Shown here: positions 21,705 through 53,526 of the stretch, piece after piece | How positions within the stretch are numbered: position 1 is the stretch's first letter | How the letters are laid out: each line of letters opens with the position of its first letter | NCBI RefSeq assembly: GCF_037975245.1 | Contig: NC_092569.1 | Location: 25,991,168-26,055,167, forward strand | Reading direction: 5' to 3' | From: Apostichopus japonicus | Lineage: Eukaryota > Echinodermata > Holothuroidea > Aspidochirotida > Stichopodidae | DNA length: 64,000 bases | Made by a program: the position numbers and the translations under genes | Notes under the pieces: generated by a model | Seen by the model: only the letters and a program-made list of their open reading frames with translations | The model's database searches: none | Told to the model about the DNA's origin: nothing

Positions 21705-21930
21705 ATCATGAGTCTCCCTATCGCTTCTCCGCCTTTTGGCTAAGATCATGTGTAGTATCTGTTCTTTCAGGGAATGGTGATACACACCTGACGATGATCA
21801 CACAGTCACAGTCCCGATGCAAGGGGACTGGGGTTAGAAGCGGATCAGTCGTTCAGTAGTTTGGTTTTCGTGCCCAGGTTCTTTCCTGGGCGACTTTTTC
21901 TTAAAAAAAGTATCATGAGTCTCCCTATCG
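21705..21930 (+). mobile_element. SINE with U2 snRNA-derived 5' end, full-length copy
   Basis: The element runs from about 21720 to 21911. Its first ~47 bases match the 5' end of U2 snRNA with about two changes (ATCGCTTCTC, GCCTTTTGGCTAAGATCA, GTGTAGTATCTGTTCTT), including the branch-point-recognition segment GTAGTA. The rest is not U2. It has hairpins AGTCCC/GGGGACT and CGTGCCCAGG/CCTGGGCG, then an ACTTTTTCTTAAAAAAAGT end. A 19-bp direct repeat beginning atcatgagtctccctatc flanks it (21705-21723 and 21912-21930), overlapping the first bases of the element. This shows reverse-transcription-mediated insertion. A second copy lies at 23041. Confidence 0.88.
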
Positions 21931-23030
21931 AGTAGGAGCCTGACCTAGCAAGCGATGATCTAGATGGTGGTAATGTGGACGCTTAGGGGATCAATTACCC
22001 TAGATCTCAGGTTATACTTTAGCCTACCTCGTCACTTCTGCATACACTGGCAGAGAAGTATAATATACGAATACACAGAACAAAGCCCTCGCAGTGCGGA
22101 ATTGTAAACAATCATTGAGGCCCTTGTCGTGATTGCGTAGTATTCTGTTTGTTGTTGTTCCAACCATGTGGACGATTACGAAGTACCGCTTTATTACCTC
22201 TCTCCTGGGAAAAGAAAACAGAATACTGATGTTCCTTGCGGTGTCAAATGTGAAGAAGACTGAATCTTTCAATACGAGGAAAGACAAGATACTACTCCAG
22301 CCAATCCCAACGCTATATCTTGACCAATCAAAATGCAATATCACTGAGTTACTCCTTCTTGGTAAAACTTCTTTTCTCTTTTCAAATTGTGATAAACCCC
22401 AGTTCTGTTCTTCTGTTGTTGATTTACTTGGAAATGAAACAAGGAAACACCGGCATATTCATATGTACATGCAATGTGTGAGAAATACAGTGCATATTCC
22501 ATTGTTAATTTAGGAATGTTGTCACCAAAGATTGTTAGCAAAGTTATTGTAGTCTGCAACCGCAGGTTGCTTTCAAGTTGCCATTGCAGGTGTTGGGTTG
22601 CGGTGTTTTTTGTTTTGTTTTTTCTCTGATCAGGCCATCTAATAACCGCACATTATTGGATTGCCCTCAATCCAACTACCCAACAATATATGGTTACAAC
22701 TAGTCCAGCCCTCATAAAATCATAGGGAGTTGTAAATCGCAGAAAGCGTATAGCTAGGGTTTGTGGGGTCCTCGATTCAAAAGTAAGAGTTGTGACCTTT
22801 AAAACTAGCTTCATTTAGACTGCTCCTGGCCCAAGTTCATAGATGTAACATTACAGGAAGGGCACCGTGATAGAATTGGTATTGAACCGGATAGTGAATT
22901 TTTCAACGAAAAAAAAACAACAGTTGCTTGTGGAATAGAAACAAAAAAGGGTACAGAGATGTTGGTAGTATGTCAAGTATCCATGCAAAAACATGACTGG
23001 CATGCAGTTGTGATCCCTTGGCTCGAAACA
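21931..23030. other. gene-free stretch between the two U2-type SINEs
   Basis: No gene recognised. Overlapping ORFs of 106 and 126 codons lie on opposite strands near 22024-22513. Neither has a recognisable domain or a supported splice context. Confidence 0.55.
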
Positions 23031-23217
23031 ATTTTCAGCGCCTTTTGGCTAAGATAATGTGTAGTATCTGTTCAATCTCGAGGTGAATGGTGCACACACA
23101 GTCACAGTCCCGATGCAAAGGGACTGGGGTTGAGAGCGGATCAGTCGTTCGGTAGTTGGGTTTTCGTGCCCAGGTTCTTTCCTGGGCGACTTTTTCTTAA
23201 AAAGTATTTTCAGCGCC
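23031..23217 (+). mobile_element. SINE with U2 snRNA-derived head, 5'-truncated copy
   Basis: The element at about 23041-23205 begins CCTTTTGGCTAAGATAATG, lacking the first ~13 bases of the U2 head. It then matches the copy at 21720 through the GTAGTATCTGTTC segment, the hairpins and the CTGGGCGACTTTTTCTT end. Target duplications ATTTTCAGCGCC lie at 23031-23042 and 23206-23217. Two independently inserted copies with the same chimeric layout show that the U2 fusion is part of the family. Confidence 0.88.
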
Positions 23218-25100
23218 ATCATTGGCAGCTGTAGATGAAACTCTGTGGTAGAGGGATTGTAGAGGGATATACTGTTGCCCTGGGATGGGTGTGGGGTGGG
23301 GTGGAGTGGGTTACGGGTTAAAGGCCTGAAGGTAAACTATACTGATTGCGCTACACAGGAGTAGGTTTATCTACTACCAGGCGAGGTGATGTGCCAATCT
23401 TAAAATGTGTTTACACCCAGGTGAGCATATTGAGACCTGAACCGTTATTTGCAAAGTGGGGTGAGGTGAATTGGAGGGGGCGGAGATGTTTTCGAATATC
23501 TGGATCAATTATGCAGTCATATCATTATTCATCTTCTTAGCTGTTTAGAGCTAATATAGAGTGTATAAACCAGTTGTACAGGCTCGTGTTAACGCGTACC
23601 ACAATTACAATAGTGTAAACACATCTTGCCAAGTTACTAGTTCACATCCGCCACCTTTGATTACTCGTACCAGGTACAGGGGCCGCTAAACTCCTCTCTA
23701 TGTTTGAGGGGAATATATTTCTGATTTGATTACAAAAACGACTGGAATAAAGTAAAGTGGTCATTTAGTCTCGGATGCGATCTGGTGATCGAATCTAATA
23801 GAACGATGCGACCTCGTCCAATCAAAGTTGTGGTCTTGGGTAAATAAAAACAACATATTTACGAATTAACTATAGATTTGTATCACCTGTTTAAACGCAA
23901 GTTTTGTGTATAGTACACCATGACATGATCAGAAACCTATAGTAGGGTACAACTTTAGTTCCTGCCAACAGTTGCCCCCTTCCGTTTCTTATTCATTCAT
24001 CATTTCAATGATAGCTTTGTTATGATGTTCACGCTTGACTATAACCCTAAATTTTTTTCTTCACACTACTCTGGGCAGCAACAATAGGCGTACCGTGAAC
24101 TGATATACCGTAATATTATGGAAGGAATCGGAAGATTTTGATAAAAAATTAAAATAAAAGAAAACATGGCATACAACACTTAGAAGGAAGAAAAAGGTCA
24201 AATCTAATTCAAAGTTGTTCATTTATTGCGAAACTTGTTATCTCCCGAAAAATTACATCACCGCCTAGATTGATCACACTAAACTGTGCATTTTGCAAGT
24301 GAATACAAAACCAGTGCACATCATCCAAACCTCTACAAGGGATTCACCTAAAATGATCCAAAAACAAAAACATCCGCCCACCCCCCCCCCACCCACACCA
24401 CTCCCCATCCTTCATTCGCCTCTGGACCTTCCAGAAAAGGTCAGCAATATATAAATCCCTCCCGAGTCATTTAACCCTGTACACGCCACTAATATATACA
24501 GAAGGTTATGTTCATTTTATGAGTGTCACAGAATGAGCAGCAAGCTTGGATTTCACATTTTTGTACTGTTCAATGCTCCCGTTATCACCTCTCTTTCTTT
24601 TTAATTATTATTATTTGGCGTTCCATCGGTCCTGGTACACTAACACTATATGTTGCTGTTATTGAATGTCCTTGAACCCAGCGATTTGCGCAAAAGTAAA
24701 CAGAGGAAGGAGGGGTCGTCCCCTACTTCCACCATACACCGTTAAGACGGAATATTTTACTTCATTCCGTCTGGGAAAAAAATAGACCATCACACCGTGC
24801 CCAGGACGCCCTTCTAGTGCATAAAGGTTTATGCCCCTGAGCTGCTCGTAAACCGCATTGTATGTCTAATTAGTGCAATTGATATGTCAACAAGCCGTGG
24901 AAACAACCATGGAGCTATAAACAGATGAAACAACAAAGCTACAGTAGTTTTTGGTTCATTCACTTGAAAATGACGTCATCATAACAGTTCCTTGGCTGCT
25001 TCTAGTCACAAGAATCTCAAATTTCGTTGGTTTTTTTTTTATTTTGCGGTAAGTGCCCACGTCACTGTGGTCTCGCAGTGTTCATGGCATTCCTCAGACC
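23218..25100. other. gene-free stretch
   Basis: No gene recognised; AT-rich with a G-rich block (23280-23310) and a C-run near 24380. Short ORFs only. Confidence 0.55.
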
Positions 25101-28775: not shown

Positions 28776-29080
28776 ATACACACAGAGAACACAGTAACTA
28801 CTGTAAATCTTAAATCCTACTGTAAATGTAAGTTTGTACCACAGTAAACTTAACTGGATTGTGCTATAAATCAGTAGCATGTGCTATTAGGATTACAGTA
28901 AGCACTGAGGATACGTGTAATCCCAACAAATCCATTTTGATGCATTTGTTGGGATTACATATATATCCTCAGTTCCTACTGTAAACCTAATAGCACATAC
29001 TACCGATTTATCAGCACGATCCAGTTTTTTTTCAGTACCGTAGTTACTGTATTCTCTATACGTGATTCGGTTGAACATCT
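28768..29080. mobile_element. fold-back (long inverted repeat) element, about 310 bp
   Basis: The left arm 28768-28932 is complementary, with small mismatches, to the right arm 28945-29080. Examples: ctcaaccgatac against gattcggttga, GAACACAGTAACTAC against GTAGTTACTGTATTC, TGTGCTATTAGG against CCTAATAGCACATA. The tip is AATCCCAACAAATCC / GCATTTGTTGGGATT. Transcribed RNA would form one long hairpin. The 8-bp target duplication of the element at 27042 lies inside the left terminus, so that element inserted into the end of this one. Confidence 0.85.

Positions 29081-42540: not shown

Positions 42541-42545
<5 letters not shown>
42483..42545 (+). repeat. 60-bp dispersed repeat, copy A
   Basis: gtcgatgtatcctttccttg through ataaggaggtttgactaata to ttgattca. 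It is about 90% identical to a block within 44401-44484 and, like it, lies directly before an (AT)n tract. Both copies follow a gtccagta motif. Confidence 0.8.
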
Positions 42546-42576
<31 letters not shown>

Positions 42577-42580
42577 TATA
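42541..42580. repeat. (AT)n microsatellite
   Basis: TATATA tract between dispersed repeat copy A and the hammerhead element. Confidence 0.9.
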
Positions 42581-42598
42581 TAGTAAATCAATAAAGAA

Positions 42599-42740
42599 TA
42601 ACACACCAGAAAAATTCCACTTCACGACCGGTTTCGTCCTTTTGGGACTCATCAGGCGAAGGTAGGAATCGAACCCCGGAGCTTCGTGTCACGAACCTAA
42701 GCCCGTACCACTCGACCACAGTGATTCTACTGGTGTGTTA
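42599..42740 (-). mobile_element. 142-bp tRNA-like / hammerhead mini-element
   Basis: On the minus strand: 11-nt 5' terminus TAACACACCAG; A box TGGTCGAGTGG (42708-42718); B box GGTTCGATTCC, a perfect consensus (42665-42675); a hammerhead ribozyme (42615-42668); then CTGGTGTGTTA, exactly complementary to the 5' terminus. The RNA would close on itself with an 11-bp helix. Internal Pol III boxes plus a self-cleaving ribozyme resemble the Schistosoma Sm-alpha SINE-like repeats and retrozymes. No clear target duplication; the left flank is an (AT)n tract and A-rich sequence. Confidence 0.75.
42615..42668 (-). ncRNA. type I hammerhead ribozyme
   Basis: Self-cleaving RNA motif, minus strand. The catalytic core is complete: CUGAUGA, stem II GUCC-CAAAA-GGAC (G10.1-C11.1 kept), GAAA, then a minimal stem III ACCGGU and the cleavage triplet GUC. 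Stem I pairs CUUCGC with GUGAAG (six pairs, one G-U). An internal loop (UAC against U) and an outer UUCC/GGAA helix follow. The predicted cut is between 42626 and 42625. The very short stem III is known from newt, Penelope-like and retrozyme hammerheads, which tend to work as dimers. ACCGGU is itself palindromic, which would help dimer formation. The outer stem I strand overlaps the Pol III B box. Confidence 0.85.
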
Positions 42741-42861
42741 AAGCGTATAAATTGGCTTTGAATAACTGTCTTAAGGGCGTATTACCCAAGTATTAAGATT
42801 GTACAGAGTGCACCCCTGGCGCTTTGAATCTGACAATCTTTACACAATTTTACACAGAATA

Positions 42862-42899
42862 GATATATATATATATATATATATATATTTTCATTTATA

Positions 42900-42933
<34 letters not shown>

Positions 42934-42951
42934 CAGATATATTTTCATTTA

Positions 42952-42989
<38 letters not shown>

Positions 42990-42992
42990 CAT
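42862..42992. repeat. (AT)n microsatellite, interrupted
   Basis: Three (AT)n blocks separated by ttttcattta and cagatat. ORFs across it are artefacts. Confidence 0.92.
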
Positions 42993-43644
42993 ATCCACAC
43001 ATACATCCAGGTCACGTGAGTAATTGTTATATGTATTTACGAAGTCCATGGTAGTTTTTTATCTTTGTTCTTCCTCAAAAATGCCACAATTAGTTCACCA
43101 CCAGTTATAAAGAGCTTTGGTAACTATTGACAATGGCCAGCCTGCGTGCGTGGTTCAAGGAAGTTTGACACGGAATAAAGTCACATGCTCGCGGAGGCAT
43201 GAGGAATGTCACCTACCATGAAAGACTACAGTTATTACATATAGGCCTAACTGTTGCACTATAAAACGAGGGCAACTATATATATCTACCGCATGCATGG
43301 TCGGTAAATATCACAAGACTCTTGCAAATGAACTCTTCTGGGATTTGGGTCCTTGACATTCCAATTTCATTTTCTTTCGAAACAAATATTGCACGACACT
43401 GATATTCATTATAGTTGCCGATAATATCTTATTTTAGAGAGAATTCTTAAATAGAACCAAATGTCTAAGATGAGAAATTTTGTGTTTGACATAAGGAGTT
43501 ATAGAAAAAGGACGAAAATTAGTCTTCATCTCTATATAACTGTCGGGATTGCTCGTTATTTTGTTGTTAGATGAATATTACAAGCCCGTAACTATAGAAA
43601 AGTACTGTCGGGATTACGAAAATATTACAAGCATGTTATAGATT

Positions 43645-50810: not shown

Positions 50811-53526
50811 GTAAGTAACTTCTTTTTTTTTTTTAAGTTTTATTTATTTATCTAGAATGACTACCTTAACATCGATAATAATGGGTTTAAAAACAATTTT
50901 TATCAGGTGACAATTTGCACTGAGATGCAAGAAATGGTTAGTCGATGGAGACGTGAGAGGGTGGGGTGAGTTGGGATGAGGTGAGAGTGAGGTAGCCATG
51001 AAGTAGCCATGTGGTAGCGCGAGATGATGTTAATATGTCTCTCCCGAAAATTATTCACTTTTCTGTTGATATGGTTTGGTCAACTGCGTCCCCAATAGTA
51101 AAACCATACGATATCGGTTACTTACACTTAGGAAACACATAAATGAAATCGTTATTTGCTTTTGGGACTTTTTTTGTTTTGTTTACTTGGTCTGTGTGTT
51201 GTGGGTTCATAGTCTCGACTTAAGTATACAGCCTATATGTCTAAAAGCTGATAAGTAAATACAAGTCGAGTGCGCTGTTTAACAAATGTGTATGCATATT
51301 TTCGCCTACGGCTTATATTCATTTCTCATTTGACCCGTGCACCCGATTAGTTTTGTATGATTTCTAAAAAAATAATCATCACAGATAATTCTCGTCAAAA
51401 CTTTACCAAAAGAAAAGTCGACCCTTTTCAAACGCTCTGAAAAAAAGGGTGGTTTAGAAAATGGATGAAACTTATGGATACGGTGCGGTTAAGGTGGGTG
51501 GGTGGGCGCCGTGGGGATTATAATAATGTCATTCGAAGATAAACTGAGACAGTGCTATAGGTGTGTGACTATAGCCATGTCCGCATAATATTTACGAATT
51601 AAAATGGCCGATTGTATTATACTCTCTTCCAGTGTATAATCCAGATTTAGCCCTATGCTGTCACCCAAGCGATGGAAATTTTGCAAGAATTGCTTTACGA
51701 TAGAGTTCCCTTCTGCATGACATTGTTACTAAACTAGTCAAGGGCTTCATTTTGTTTACAATACAGACCCTGCGCTTGCTTGCATAGTGGGACAATAGGG
51801 TTTTGATCAAGCCATGCGTGAAAAGGGCAATGCTTAAAAGCATCGCCATGACAACAACCGCCGTCATAATGAAATGACACCTTTTTTTTCATTATAGCCT
51901 ATTACAAGGCAATGATATCAACTGAAGGGAGAACCCCTTCGAAGGTATAAAAAAAACGTGACCGTGTTTAGCGTACATATGACATGGCAGCTTATTTAAA
52001 TACATTCACAATAATGAACAAACCACTTTATATACATGGGCCTTATACATACTGAAAGTTCGCATAAACATTATTACTCATAATTACGTTTAGTATATGA
52101 TATCATATGATATTATTGGTTAATTTGCACAGAGCGGTGTGTATTATGTAGTATTTTCAAGAGTCTTTAACTCTTAAAAGGATCGGAGGTGCCATATACT
52201 TCCCATCAGAGCAAATGAAAATGATTGGCGGTTGTGGGGGAAGGGAACGGGAGGGGAGGGGGCGGCAGGGTGAAAACGAAAACAAAATGATAGGTTAACT
52301 GGAGATCTCTCTCTGACCGGTGGAAAAAGCCTGTCATTGCTTTCAGAATATCACAATAGAAATGTATGAAAATGATTATTTTCTTTTTAAGTTGTCAACC
52401 AGAATAAAGAAAAAAACAGCCAAAATTTTCAAATAATAAAGTTTTTCAATTTCTGACATGATTCCATTTCGATACTAGTGACGGATCTCATCCCGTTTTT
52501 CCACTGATCTTATATAGTTTGGTCGTTCATCACCATAATAAATTCCTATAACATTAATGAATCAAATGAAATTTGTTACACAATACAGAAGGAAGGAATC
52601 AATTAGCAAGAGTGGTGTAAGTAAATCAGAGGTACAGCATATTATTAATTGACACCCAGCAACGATTCGCGAGGGAAAATGAGTGCGCAATAGTGTAAGG
52701 AATTGGAAAGGAGGTATACTTGGTTGGTCACCCCTTTAATCCTTATTTTTCAAATTTAATAACAACCCTCCCGCCGCCCCCCCCCCCCGCTCCCTTCCAT
52801 ATACATGCCTCCTCCATAACTGTTATGAAAGTCTTCTCGAATCTGTTCTTACCTGTCAGTAGGTATAGACTTAAATTCAGTCGTTTTCATATTTCATTAT
52901 TCTCTTTCTGCTTACAGATACTACTATTCGCCGTGGTTGGTCTGTGCGTTCTCACTATTTGCGAAGCGGGCAAAAAAGGAGGCAATACTGAAAAGAAAAG
53001 GAATAAATCAGGAAAATCGCGATCGGCTCGGGCAGACCTCAATTCGCTCGACTTTTGTAGGACTCCGAGCAAGAGGGAGTTGACCATTCAGCTGAAGAAG
53101 TTGAGATCCAAACAAGATATGGGCAGTGTCTTCATCGCACCTTCCATGAGTGGGCCTCATCACCATCCCGCCGAGGGAACCGCCGCAGACGACTCCTCTC
53201 CAACAGCCCGAGCAGACGCTGCGCCCGCAGCAGCCGCCGCAGCCGGGAGAGGGGGACACTGCCAGGAGGTTCACTATGATGTTCCTGTCTTGGACAGGTA
53301 CCCCGTCAGCCTCAGGGAAGTAAGGTGTCACTGTGTCGATTGCGTTAATGAGAATGAGATACCTAACGCAAGGTGTGATCCTATTATGTACGCTTTCCCT
53401 GTACTGAAACTCAGCGACTCACAACCATGTTTCAATGGGCTATTTCAGTACACGCAAATGGAGGAGTACATCACAGTGGGTTGTAAATACGTTCGAAACA
53501 ACCGACCCCCAATCTATGGCAGTTAA
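50796..53526 (+). CDS. IL-17-like secreted cytokine (2 coding exons)
   Basis: Secreted signalling protein of the IL-17 family, expected to act through IL-17 receptors in invertebrate immunity. Coding exons 50796-50810 and 52918-53526 join in phase 0 (donor GTAAGT, acceptor CTTACAG) into 207 residues. Residues 1-22 form a clear signal peptide: MKYNT from exon 1, then ILLFAVVGLCVLTICEA. A basic Lys/Arg/Ser segment follows, then a variable region with HHH and a run of six alanines. The IL-17 domain is at about 118-198, with LDRYPVSLREVRCHC (family: RYP--I-EA-C), then PVLKL, a Cys-F element and ITVGCKYV (family: VGC-CV). The start was chosen because it alone supplies a complete signal peptide. 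The paralogue group cannot be decided. Cysteine pattern is unusual (see findings). Confidence 0.88.
50811..52917 (+). other. IL-17-like gene intron
   Basis: 2.1 kb, nothing recognised inside except a C-run near 52778. It ends in a strong tract TTCTCTTTCTGCTTACAG. Confidence 0.75.
52918..53526 (+). CDS. IL-17-like gene, coding exon 2 with stop
   Basis: 202 codons plus TAA (53524-53526). Encodes most of the signal peptide and the whole mature protein. Mature cysteines at 52, 120, 142, 144, 147, 158, 176 and 194. The open frame extends upstream of the acceptor, but that part is intronic: it lacks homology and would bury the signal peptide. Confidence 0.88.
   Translation: MLLFAVVGLCVLTICEAGKKGGNTEKKRNKSGKSRSARADLNSLDFCRTPSKRELTIQLKKLRSKQDMGSVFIAPSMSGPHHHPAEGTAADDSSPTARADAAPAAAAAAGRGGHCQEVHYDVPVLDRYPVSLREVRCHCVDCVNENEIPNARCDPIMYAFPVLKLSDSQPCFNGLFQYTQMEEYITVGCKYVRNNRPPIYGS

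What the first reader, a model, noticed from the sequence alone, without database searches (positions are those of the whole stretch)
42599..42740. Complete hammerhead ribozyme fused to a tRNA-like Pol III promoter in a 142-nt self-closing element
Seen: the minus strand carries CUGAUGA, a 4-bp stem II, GAAA, the cleavage triplet GUC and a two-part stem I, with no core mismatch. Directly upstream are consensus A and B boxes, and the B box 3' end doubles as the outer strand of ribozyme stem I. The element's two termini (TAACACACCAG / CTGGTGTGTTA) are perfectly complementary. Known: hammerheads occur in Schistosoma Sm-alpha repeats, Penelope-like elements and retrozymes, often with minimal stem III. 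Inferred: a mobile or circular-RNA-forming noncoding element in which promoter, ribozyme and closing helix are interlocked.
Basis: partly seen in the sequence, partly recalled or inferred. Interest (0 to 1): 0.87.

Follow-up and report, generated by a model that had tools for sequence, protein, structure and literature searches.

The report
Hammerhead retrozyme with tRNA-like promoter
The spot is one copy of a family of small non-coding jumping elements in an animal genome that carry a self-cutting RNA and a tRNA-type promoter, and its insertion scars point to Penelope-type retrotransposons as the machinery that moves it.

Summary
The hammerhead is real (Rfam type I, 38.8 bits, E 2.8e-6), as are the A and B boxes and the 11-bp helix. 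The "142-nt element" is not: 42 of 42 full copies share the sequence downstream of it and 33 of 42 the sequence upstream. It is a domain of a tandemly repeating 341-nt unit, 41.6% GC, counted from cleavage site to cleavage site. The genome (671.6 Mb) holds 510 such hammerheads (<=3 mismatches; control 0). The window copy spans 42574-42846, minus strand, between AT tracts.

This is a metazoan non-LTR retrozyme. Two things are unusual. It carries an internal tRNA-type Pol III promoter and T5 terminator; a review says retrozymes seem to have no promoters, though schistosome Sm-alpha is tRNA-like. Its insertions resemble those of Penelope-like elements (PLEs): 66 of 77 3' ends fall in two zones with main peaks 37 nt apart, 60 of 72 outer 3' ends adjoin (AT)5+ (background 3.3%), and 23 of 49 insertions are head-to-head. 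The genome encodes PLEs. Circles, Pol III activity and PLE mobilisation remain inferred.

The parts
42574..42846 (-). whole retrozyme copy (unit positions 121-341 then 1-52; unit position 1 = first base after the cleavage site)
   Evidence: blastn of the 341-nt unit: 42626-42846 at 95.9% and 42574-42625 at 98.1%
42544..42582 (.). (AT)n tract at the 3' end of the copy; the unit's own TATATAT (42576-42582), unit 44-50, merges into it
   Evidence: TRF; 3' ends at unit 44-52 in 37 of 77 arms
42859..42994 (.). AT-rich tract at the 5' side of the copy
   Evidence: TRF
42708..42718 (-). A box (TGGTCGAGTGG)
   Evidence: exact match to the recalled consensus; A+B pair at tRNA spacing 47 times in 2235 simulated windows
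42665..42675 (-). B box (GGTTCGATTCC); its last six bases form the outer strand of ribozyme stem I
42613..42670 (-). hammerhead ribozyme with two-part stem I; Rfam Hammerhead_1 at 42620-42661
   Evidence: 38.8 bits, E 2.8e-6; Hammerhead_HH9 40.0 bits, below its gathering score 52
42625..42626 (-). predicted cleavage site (GUC | G)
   Evidence: Rfam alignment
42627..42632 (-). minimal stem III: one A-U pair with palindromic CCGG loop
   Evidence: sequence
42610..42614 (-). TTTTT, likely Pol III terminator
   Evidence: sequence; T run of 4 or more in 38 of 40 distinct copies
42730..42740 (-). 5' arm of the 11-bp internal helix
42599..42609 (-). 3' arm of the 11-bp internal helix

Best explanation
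The locus is one less-than-unit-length copy of a non-autonomous metazoan retrozyme family with a 341-nt unit. Shown from sequence: a type I hammerhead, a tRNA-type A/B promoter overlapping it, head-to-tail units of 341 nt, several hundred copies, 3' ends mostly in two zones (main peaks 37 nt apart) 44-87 nt downstream of the cleavage site and mostly joined to (AT)n DNA, scattered 5' ends, and frequent head-to-head double insertions. Inferred: transcripts of tandem copies cut themselves at each hammerhead; the 341-nt RNA is closed into a circle by a host tRNA ligase; a Penelope-like RT/GIY-YIG protein cuts both strands of AT-rich DNA and starts reverse transcription inside the RNA at the two tail sites; each DNA end can prime its own cDNA, which runs through the ligated cleavage site and sometimes more than once round the circle; and the two cDNAs join head to head. 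The internal Pol III promoter probably drives a transcript of about 120 nt ending at TTTTT, or feeds unit-length RNA only by read-through; its role is the least certain step.
For: Hammerhead. Copies: 37 full-length matches among 45, at 96-100% identity, a lower bound (40 of 1126 candidates scored); 510 hammerheads genome-wide. Tandem 341-nt units: L039, L067, and L079 with three hammerheads in tandem. Circle fold -91.6 against -76.7 (sd 5.1) for 60 shuffles, none as low. 57 of 77 arms run across the cleavage junction, 11 span more than 341 bp, 66 of 77 3' ends lie at unit 44-52 or 76-87, only 5 of 77 5' ends lie at unit 1-3. 60 of 72 outer 3' ends and 16 of 26 outer 5' ends adjoin (AT)5+, background 3.3%; 23 of 49 insertions head-to-head, in 17 of these both outer 3' ends lie in the two zones (read off). 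A published PLE cleaves and extends both strands of AT-rich DNA and starts RT at two adjacent internal RNA sites, which is reflected in the optional 30-40-bp genomic tail (PMC11167929: abstract and passages). The genome has 37 GIY-YIG matches over cut-off, and one 835-aa stop-to-stop frame has RVT_1 plus C-terminal GIY-YIG and runs back into an (AT)n tract.
Against: No RNA data: neither circles nor Pol III transcripts are shown. The TTTTT run would stop Pol III before a unit-length RNA is made, so the internal promoter does not obviously feed circles. 11 of 77 3' ends lie outside the two zones, and 6 of 23 head-to-head insertions have an outer end outside them. Unit and the one PLE copy read share no significant sequence (best E 0.13), and that copy has no Rfam hammerhead at E up to 1. 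Units within a locus were only slightly more alike than between loci (0.943 against 0.933; 110 of 2000 permutations as high), so a single template molecule per insertion is not proven, although the full L079 units are identical. In the published PLE, HHR cleavage was not needed for insertion in vitro, and its RT start site was not homologous to the cut DNA, whereas here the 3' ends lie at AT-like sites that could anneal to the target. No clear target-site duplication was found at the window copy.
Confidence: 0.72

Rival explanations
1. Same family, but the template for reverse transcription is an uncleaved multimeric or read-through transcript; the hammerhead is dispensable for insertion and circles are a by-product.
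For: Copies read through the cleavage site (57 of 77 arms), which uncleaved RNA also explains; the published PLE used unprocessed RNA in vitro (PMC11167929, passages).
Against: Insertions longer than one unit occur at loci on several contigs (11 of 77 arms), which monomeric genomic copies cannot template without a circle or template jumping; the core is intact in 34 of 40 distinct copies, though these were picked by similarity or by an exact hammerhead.
Confidence: 0.3
2. An ordinary tRNA-derived SINE moved by a LINE, with a hammerhead in its body, like schistosome Sm-alpha.
For: A and B boxes and a T5 run; Sm-alpha elements are SINE-like, carry hammerheads, and tRNA-Gln-like S. mansoni sequences resemble them (PMC2770079, passages).
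Against: Head-to-tail 341-nt units, head-to-head insertions, (AT)n on both sides and two internal 3'-end zones are not usual LINE/SINE traits; no target-site duplication seen at the window copy, while two U2-headed SINEs in the same window carry direct repeats at both ends (by eye). No LINE with a matching 3' end was searched for.
Confidence: 0.12
3. A self-contained 142-nt element closed by its complementary termini, or a MITE with terminal inverted repeats.
For: The 11-bp inverted repeat is exact in the window and pairs in 99.3% of cells over 26 distinct copies.
Against: Sequence on both sides is part of the repeat: 42 of 42 copies downstream, 33 of 42 upstream; so none of these 42 ends at the repeat on both sides.
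Confidence: 0.02

Closest known systems
Metazoan non-LTR retrozymes (Cervera and de la Pena 2020, PMC7229834; review PMC7761336)
   Different: The review states that retrozymes seem to harbour no promoter and that metazoan ones show no motif pointing to their helper; here there are internal A/B boxes with a T5 run and a PLE-type insertion signature with (AT)n targets and head-to-head copies. (A plant LTR retrozyme is reported to have a promoter: abstracts of PMC9695139 and PMC12029980 in the listing.)
Schistosoma Sm-alpha / Sj-alpha SINE-like elements (PMC2770079)
   Same: tRNA-like sequence and hammerhead in one short non-coding retroelement family with thousands of copies
   Different: Their sequence was not held here, so homology and the position of the ribozyme relative to the B box could not be compared; insertion signature not compared
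Penelope-like elements, Poseidon of Anolis (PMC11167929)
   Same: Hammerhead, tandem copies, AT-rich target, both strands cut and extended, two adjacent internal RT start sites matching an optional 30-40-bp tail (here main 3' ends 37 nt apart)
   Different: PLEs code for RT and GIY-YIG; this unit is non-coding, has A/B boxes and shows no significant sequence match to the PLE copy read; in Anolis the RT start is not homologous to the cut DNA
Helenus TRIMs (PMC10886601)
   Same: tRNA-derived sequence inside a short non-autonomous retroelement
   Different: Helenus has LTRs and primer-binding sites, and solo LTRs with 5-bp duplications; not seen here. In the passages seen the only mention of hammerheads is a reference title

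Membership tests
metazoan non-LTR retrozyme | type I hammerhead motif | tested here: met
   Rfam RF00163 38.8 bits over gathering score
metazoan non-LTR retrozyme | head-to-tail repeats of 150-450 bp, one hammerhead each | tested here: met
   341-nt units in L039, L067, L079; 11 of 77 arms longer than one unit
metazoan non-LTR retrozyme | GC below 50% | tested here: met
   41.6% for the unit
metazoan non-LTR retrozyme | target-site duplications, when present, longer than 4 bp | tested here: inconclusive
   none clear at the window copy; a 7-bp match lies inside the repeat, not at its ends; not tested at other copies, where (AT)n targets would hide duplications
metazoan non-LTR retrozyme | self-cleaved linear and circular RNA in tissue | not testable with these tools
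   no RNA data held
metazoan non-LTR retrozyme | no recognisable internal promoter (as reported, PMC7761336) | tested here: not met
   consensus A and B boxes and TTTTT; a descriptive remark of the review, not a defining requirement; promoter activity untested
Penelope-like element (autonomous) | open frame with RT and GIY-YIG | tested here: not met
   the unit is 341 nt and cannot hold a frame of the size seen in L087
mobilised by Penelope-like elements | two adjacent internal RT start sites with an optional 30-40-bp tail, AT-rich target, both strands primed | tested here: met
   3' ends at unit 44-52 (37) and 76-87 (29) of 77; (AT)5+ at 60 of 72 outer 3' ends; 23 of 49 head-to-head; a match of pattern to PMC11167929, not a test of the enzyme
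tRNA-derived SINE (Sm-alpha kind) | A and B boxes plus LINE-type 3' end and target-site duplication | tested here: inconclusive
   boxes present; 3' ends at internal AT sites; duplication looked for only at the window copy, none clear; no LINE 3' end searched for

The most novel reading that the evidence does not exclude
A retrozyme that owns a Pol III promoter fused into its hammerhead and is inserted by a Penelope-like protein that primes on the circular RNA from both ends of an (AT)n break. The insertion scars would then be a direct genomic record of rolling, double-ended reverse transcription of a ribozyme-made RNA circle, and would name the helper that the retrozyme field lacks.
Probability: 0.4. 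Interest if true: 0.8.

Novelty: new variant of a known kind. Interest (0 to 1): 0.6.

Why it matters
How metazoan retrozymes are transcribed and which enzyme inserts them are left open in the two papers read (PMC7229834, PMC7761336). This family offers a candidate answer to both: an internal tRNA-type promoter, and insertion scars that match the biochemistry of a Penelope-like protein. With 510 hammerheads of one family in a long-contig genome it makes both questions directly testable.

Tried and rejected
Rejected: 142-nt boundaries. Rejected: a Pol III product closed by the terminal helix, because TTTTT precedes the 3' arm. An early idea that the inverted repeat was a palindromic target or a MITE end was dropped. 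Covariation gave no support: 0 pairs with changes on both sides over 26 distinct rows. Within-locus identity was tested and was weak. The unit had no significant match to the PLE copy L087, and L087 had no Rfam hammerhead; a CTGAAGA...GAAA look-alike in its 3' region is unscored. Pattern scans of viral contigs and genome contigs found no relative of this element; the 9 viral contigs are a different arrangement and L010 was judged by eye to be part of a protein gene beside a CRISPR array. Protein search with the IL-17 frame listed one protein, the window's own. The Rfam hammerhead search of the whole genome was asked many times and never answered, so other hammerhead families in this genome are unknown. 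Paper searches bearing on novelty. Among the titles and abstract starts that they listed (capped lists) I saw no metazoan retrozyme with a Pol III promoter or a PLE tail signature; most subscription papers are not held, so this is not proof of novelty.

Sampling limits: the loci were picked as best matches to the 142-nt query or as exact hammerheads. One search used 39 sequences and searches used 47, after leaving out 20 short loci that repeat regions held in the 10-kb loci; L011-L018 and L077/L078 were left out of these as repeats of other loci held. In one search clusters under 100 bp were dropped, and the (AT)5+ test looked 30 bases outside and 10 bases inside each end, so the unit's own TATATAT can contribute. 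Some insertions are not independent: L060/L061, L030/L043 and L031/L044 look like copies of one insertion by segmental duplication, and L066 holds one insertion twice. In one search, 12 identical sequences were dropped and 40 kept.

Full report
WHAT WAS CHECKED. The minus strand at 42599-42740 does carry a complete type I hammerhead. Rfam Hammerhead_1 matches 42661-42620 with 38.8 bits (gathering score 34, E 2.8e-6), and a looser scan gives Hammerhead_HH9 over 42672-42605 with 40.0 bits, below that family's cut-off of 52. A strict motif search (core, 4-bp stem II, 6-bp stem I) finds 1 in the window and 0 in 2235 first-order Markov windows. Stem III is a single A-U pair with a palindromic CCGG loop, like the weak helix III described for one axolotl retrozyme family (PMC7229834, text parts 1-4 of 6 read). 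The A and B boxes match the recalled consensus; a pair at tRNA spacing occurred 47 times in 2235 simulated windows, so alone it would be modest evidence. ARAGORN found no tRNA gene, and no Rfam tRNA match is among the 7 matches at E up to 0.5, so only the promoter boxes are tRNA-like. A TTTTT run at 42610-42614 lies between ribozyme stem I and the 3' arm of the 11-bp helix.

THE ELEMENT IS LARGER. The window lies on contig C9 of a 671.6-Mb assembly. The 142-nt query gave 45 matches, of which 37 are full length, 3 start at position 3 and 5 are shorter; identity of the first 40 is 96-100%. Only 40 of 1126 candidates were scored, so this is a lower bound. A 36-nt hammerhead pattern with up to 3 mismatches occurs 510 times, while the reversed control pattern occurs 0 times. 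With flanks fetched, 42 of 42 full copies share the sequence downstream of the 142 nt and 33 of 42 the sequence upstream. Tandem copies define the unit: 341 nt from cleavage site to cleavage site, 41.6% GC, circular minimum free energy -91.6 kcal/mol against a mean of -76.7 (sd 5.1) for 60 shuffles. In that fold the 11-bp helix is an internal stem. The window copy is 42574-42846 minus, unit positions 121-341 followed by 1-52, between two AT tracts.

HOW COPIES ARE JOINED TO THE GENOME. In 47 sequences I chained hits of the unit into 77 arms. Their 3' ends fall at unit 44-52 in 37 (30 of them at 50), at 76-87 in 29 (19 at 87), at 36 in 1 and elsewhere in 10. Their 5' ends are scattered; only 5 of 77 lie at unit 1-3, where a simply cleaved RNA would begin. 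57 of 77 arms run across the cleavage junction and 11 of 77 span more than 341 bp. L079 holds three hammerheads in tandem; its two full units are identical to each other and to the overlapping inverted arm. Of 49 insertions, 23 are head-to-head (unit 3' direction outward on both sides); in 17 of these both outer ends lie in the two zones, in L064 one end is at unit 36, and in L035, L058, L059, L060 and L061 one arm ends elsewhere (read off). 60 of 72 outer 3' ends and 16 of 26 outer 5' ends lie by an (AT)5+ tract, against 3.3% of 4000 background positions. The copies were chosen for similarity to the 142-nt query or for an exact hammerhead, so 5' ends are biased; the inverted partner arms were not chosen. 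A few insertions are segmental duplicates of each other, so the counts are of copies, not of events.

MECHANISM. These scars match what was found in vitro for the Penelope-like element of Anolis: it cleaves and extends both strands of AT-rich DNA, and reverse transcription starts at two adjacent sites inside the RNA, which agrees with the optional 30-40-bp tail of PLE copies (PMC11167929, abstract and passages). Here the two main 3' ends, 50 and 87, are 37 nt apart and downstream of the hammerhead cut, with an AC-rich stretch between them (by eye). One difference: in Anolis the start site is not homologous to the cut DNA, while here both sites are AU-rich and could anneal to (AT)n. The genome has 37 GIY-YIG matches over the family cut-off (626 candidates, 150 scored). 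One locus read (L087) has an 835-aa stop-to-stop frame that runs back into an (AT)n tract; 806 residues of it gave RVT_1 (E 1.8e-11) and C-terminal GIY-YIG (E 1.3e-5). This makes a PLE the best candidate helper. It is not proof: unit and L087 share no significant sequence, and no hammerhead was scored in L087. Crossing of the cleavage junction and more-than-unit copies fit a circular template, but multimeric uncleaved RNA fits as well, and the Anolis PLE did not need ribozyme cleavage in vitro. The role of the Pol III promoter is unsettled: transcription ending at TTTTT would give about 120 nt, containing the ribozyme and its cut site but neither a whole unit nor the 3' arm of the helix.

RESULTS AGAINST. 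Covariation was absent: over 26 distinct rows 98.5% of cells pair but no pair changes on both sides, and shuffled controls do as well, so helices are not supported by evolution within this family. Within-locus identity (mean 0.943, median 0.978, 61 comparisons) was only slightly above between-locus identity (mean 0.933, median 0.949, 4850), with 110 of 2000 permutations as high. A Rfam hammerhead survey of the genome did not complete.

COMPARISON WITH WHAT IS KNOWN. The unit meets three structural features of metazoan non-LTR retrozymes tested here (type I hammerhead, tandem units of this size, low GC); target-site duplication was inconclusive and RNA circles untestable. The 2020 review says that retrozymes seem to harbour no promoter and that metazoan ones show no motif pointing to their helper (PMC7761336 section 9); the 2020 article names PLEs as a strong candidate, so the PLE idea is theirs and the insertion evidence is what is added. 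A plant LTR retrozyme is reported to have a promoter (abstracts of PMC9695139 and PMC12029980, listing). Schistosome Sm-alpha elements already combine tRNA-Gln-like sequence with a hammerhead (PMC2770079, passages), so the fusion as such is not new; whether they share the B box/stem I overlap could not be checked. The judgement is a new variant of a known kind.

Noticed in passing
window 21720-21920 and 23028-23220, + strand: Two copies of a U2-snRNA-headed SINE: the U2 5' end (Rfam 53.6 bits; second copy 28.2 bits, below the cut-off of 46, E 0.097) followed by a shared body (84% over 182 columns), with direct repeats at both ends (about 19 and 12 bp by eye).
   Followed up: partly
L001 548-608, L002 6000-6060, L003 2146-2206, L005 7424-7480: Viral contigs with tRNA genes carry a hammerhead-like core just downstream of a tRNA gene (Asp in L001, L002, L003; Trp in L005), as if a ribozyme trimmed a tRNA precursor. 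No Rfam hammerhead match reached E 1e-5 in L001, L002 or L005; L003 was in the gathering scan only, with none.
   Followed up: partly
L004 9041-9095, L008 2809-2863: Rfam type III hammerhead at 47.0 bits, just under the gathering score of 48.5, in two viral contigs.
   Followed up: no
window 52699-53526, + strand: Open frame with an interleukin-17 domain (Pfam PF06083, E 2.1e-8), which points to an animal host; species not identified.
   Followed up: no
window 28881-28996: Long near-perfect hairpin scoring weakly as mir-12 (29.7 bits, cut-off 55); looks like a MITE-type palindrome.
   Followed up: no
L080: Beside a retrozyme insertion lies an inverted piece that by eye resembles the 3' region of the Penelope-like element in L087.
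   Followed up: no
L066 4183-5238: A whole head-to-head insertion appears twice, about 544 bp apart, suggesting a later local duplication.
   Followed up: no
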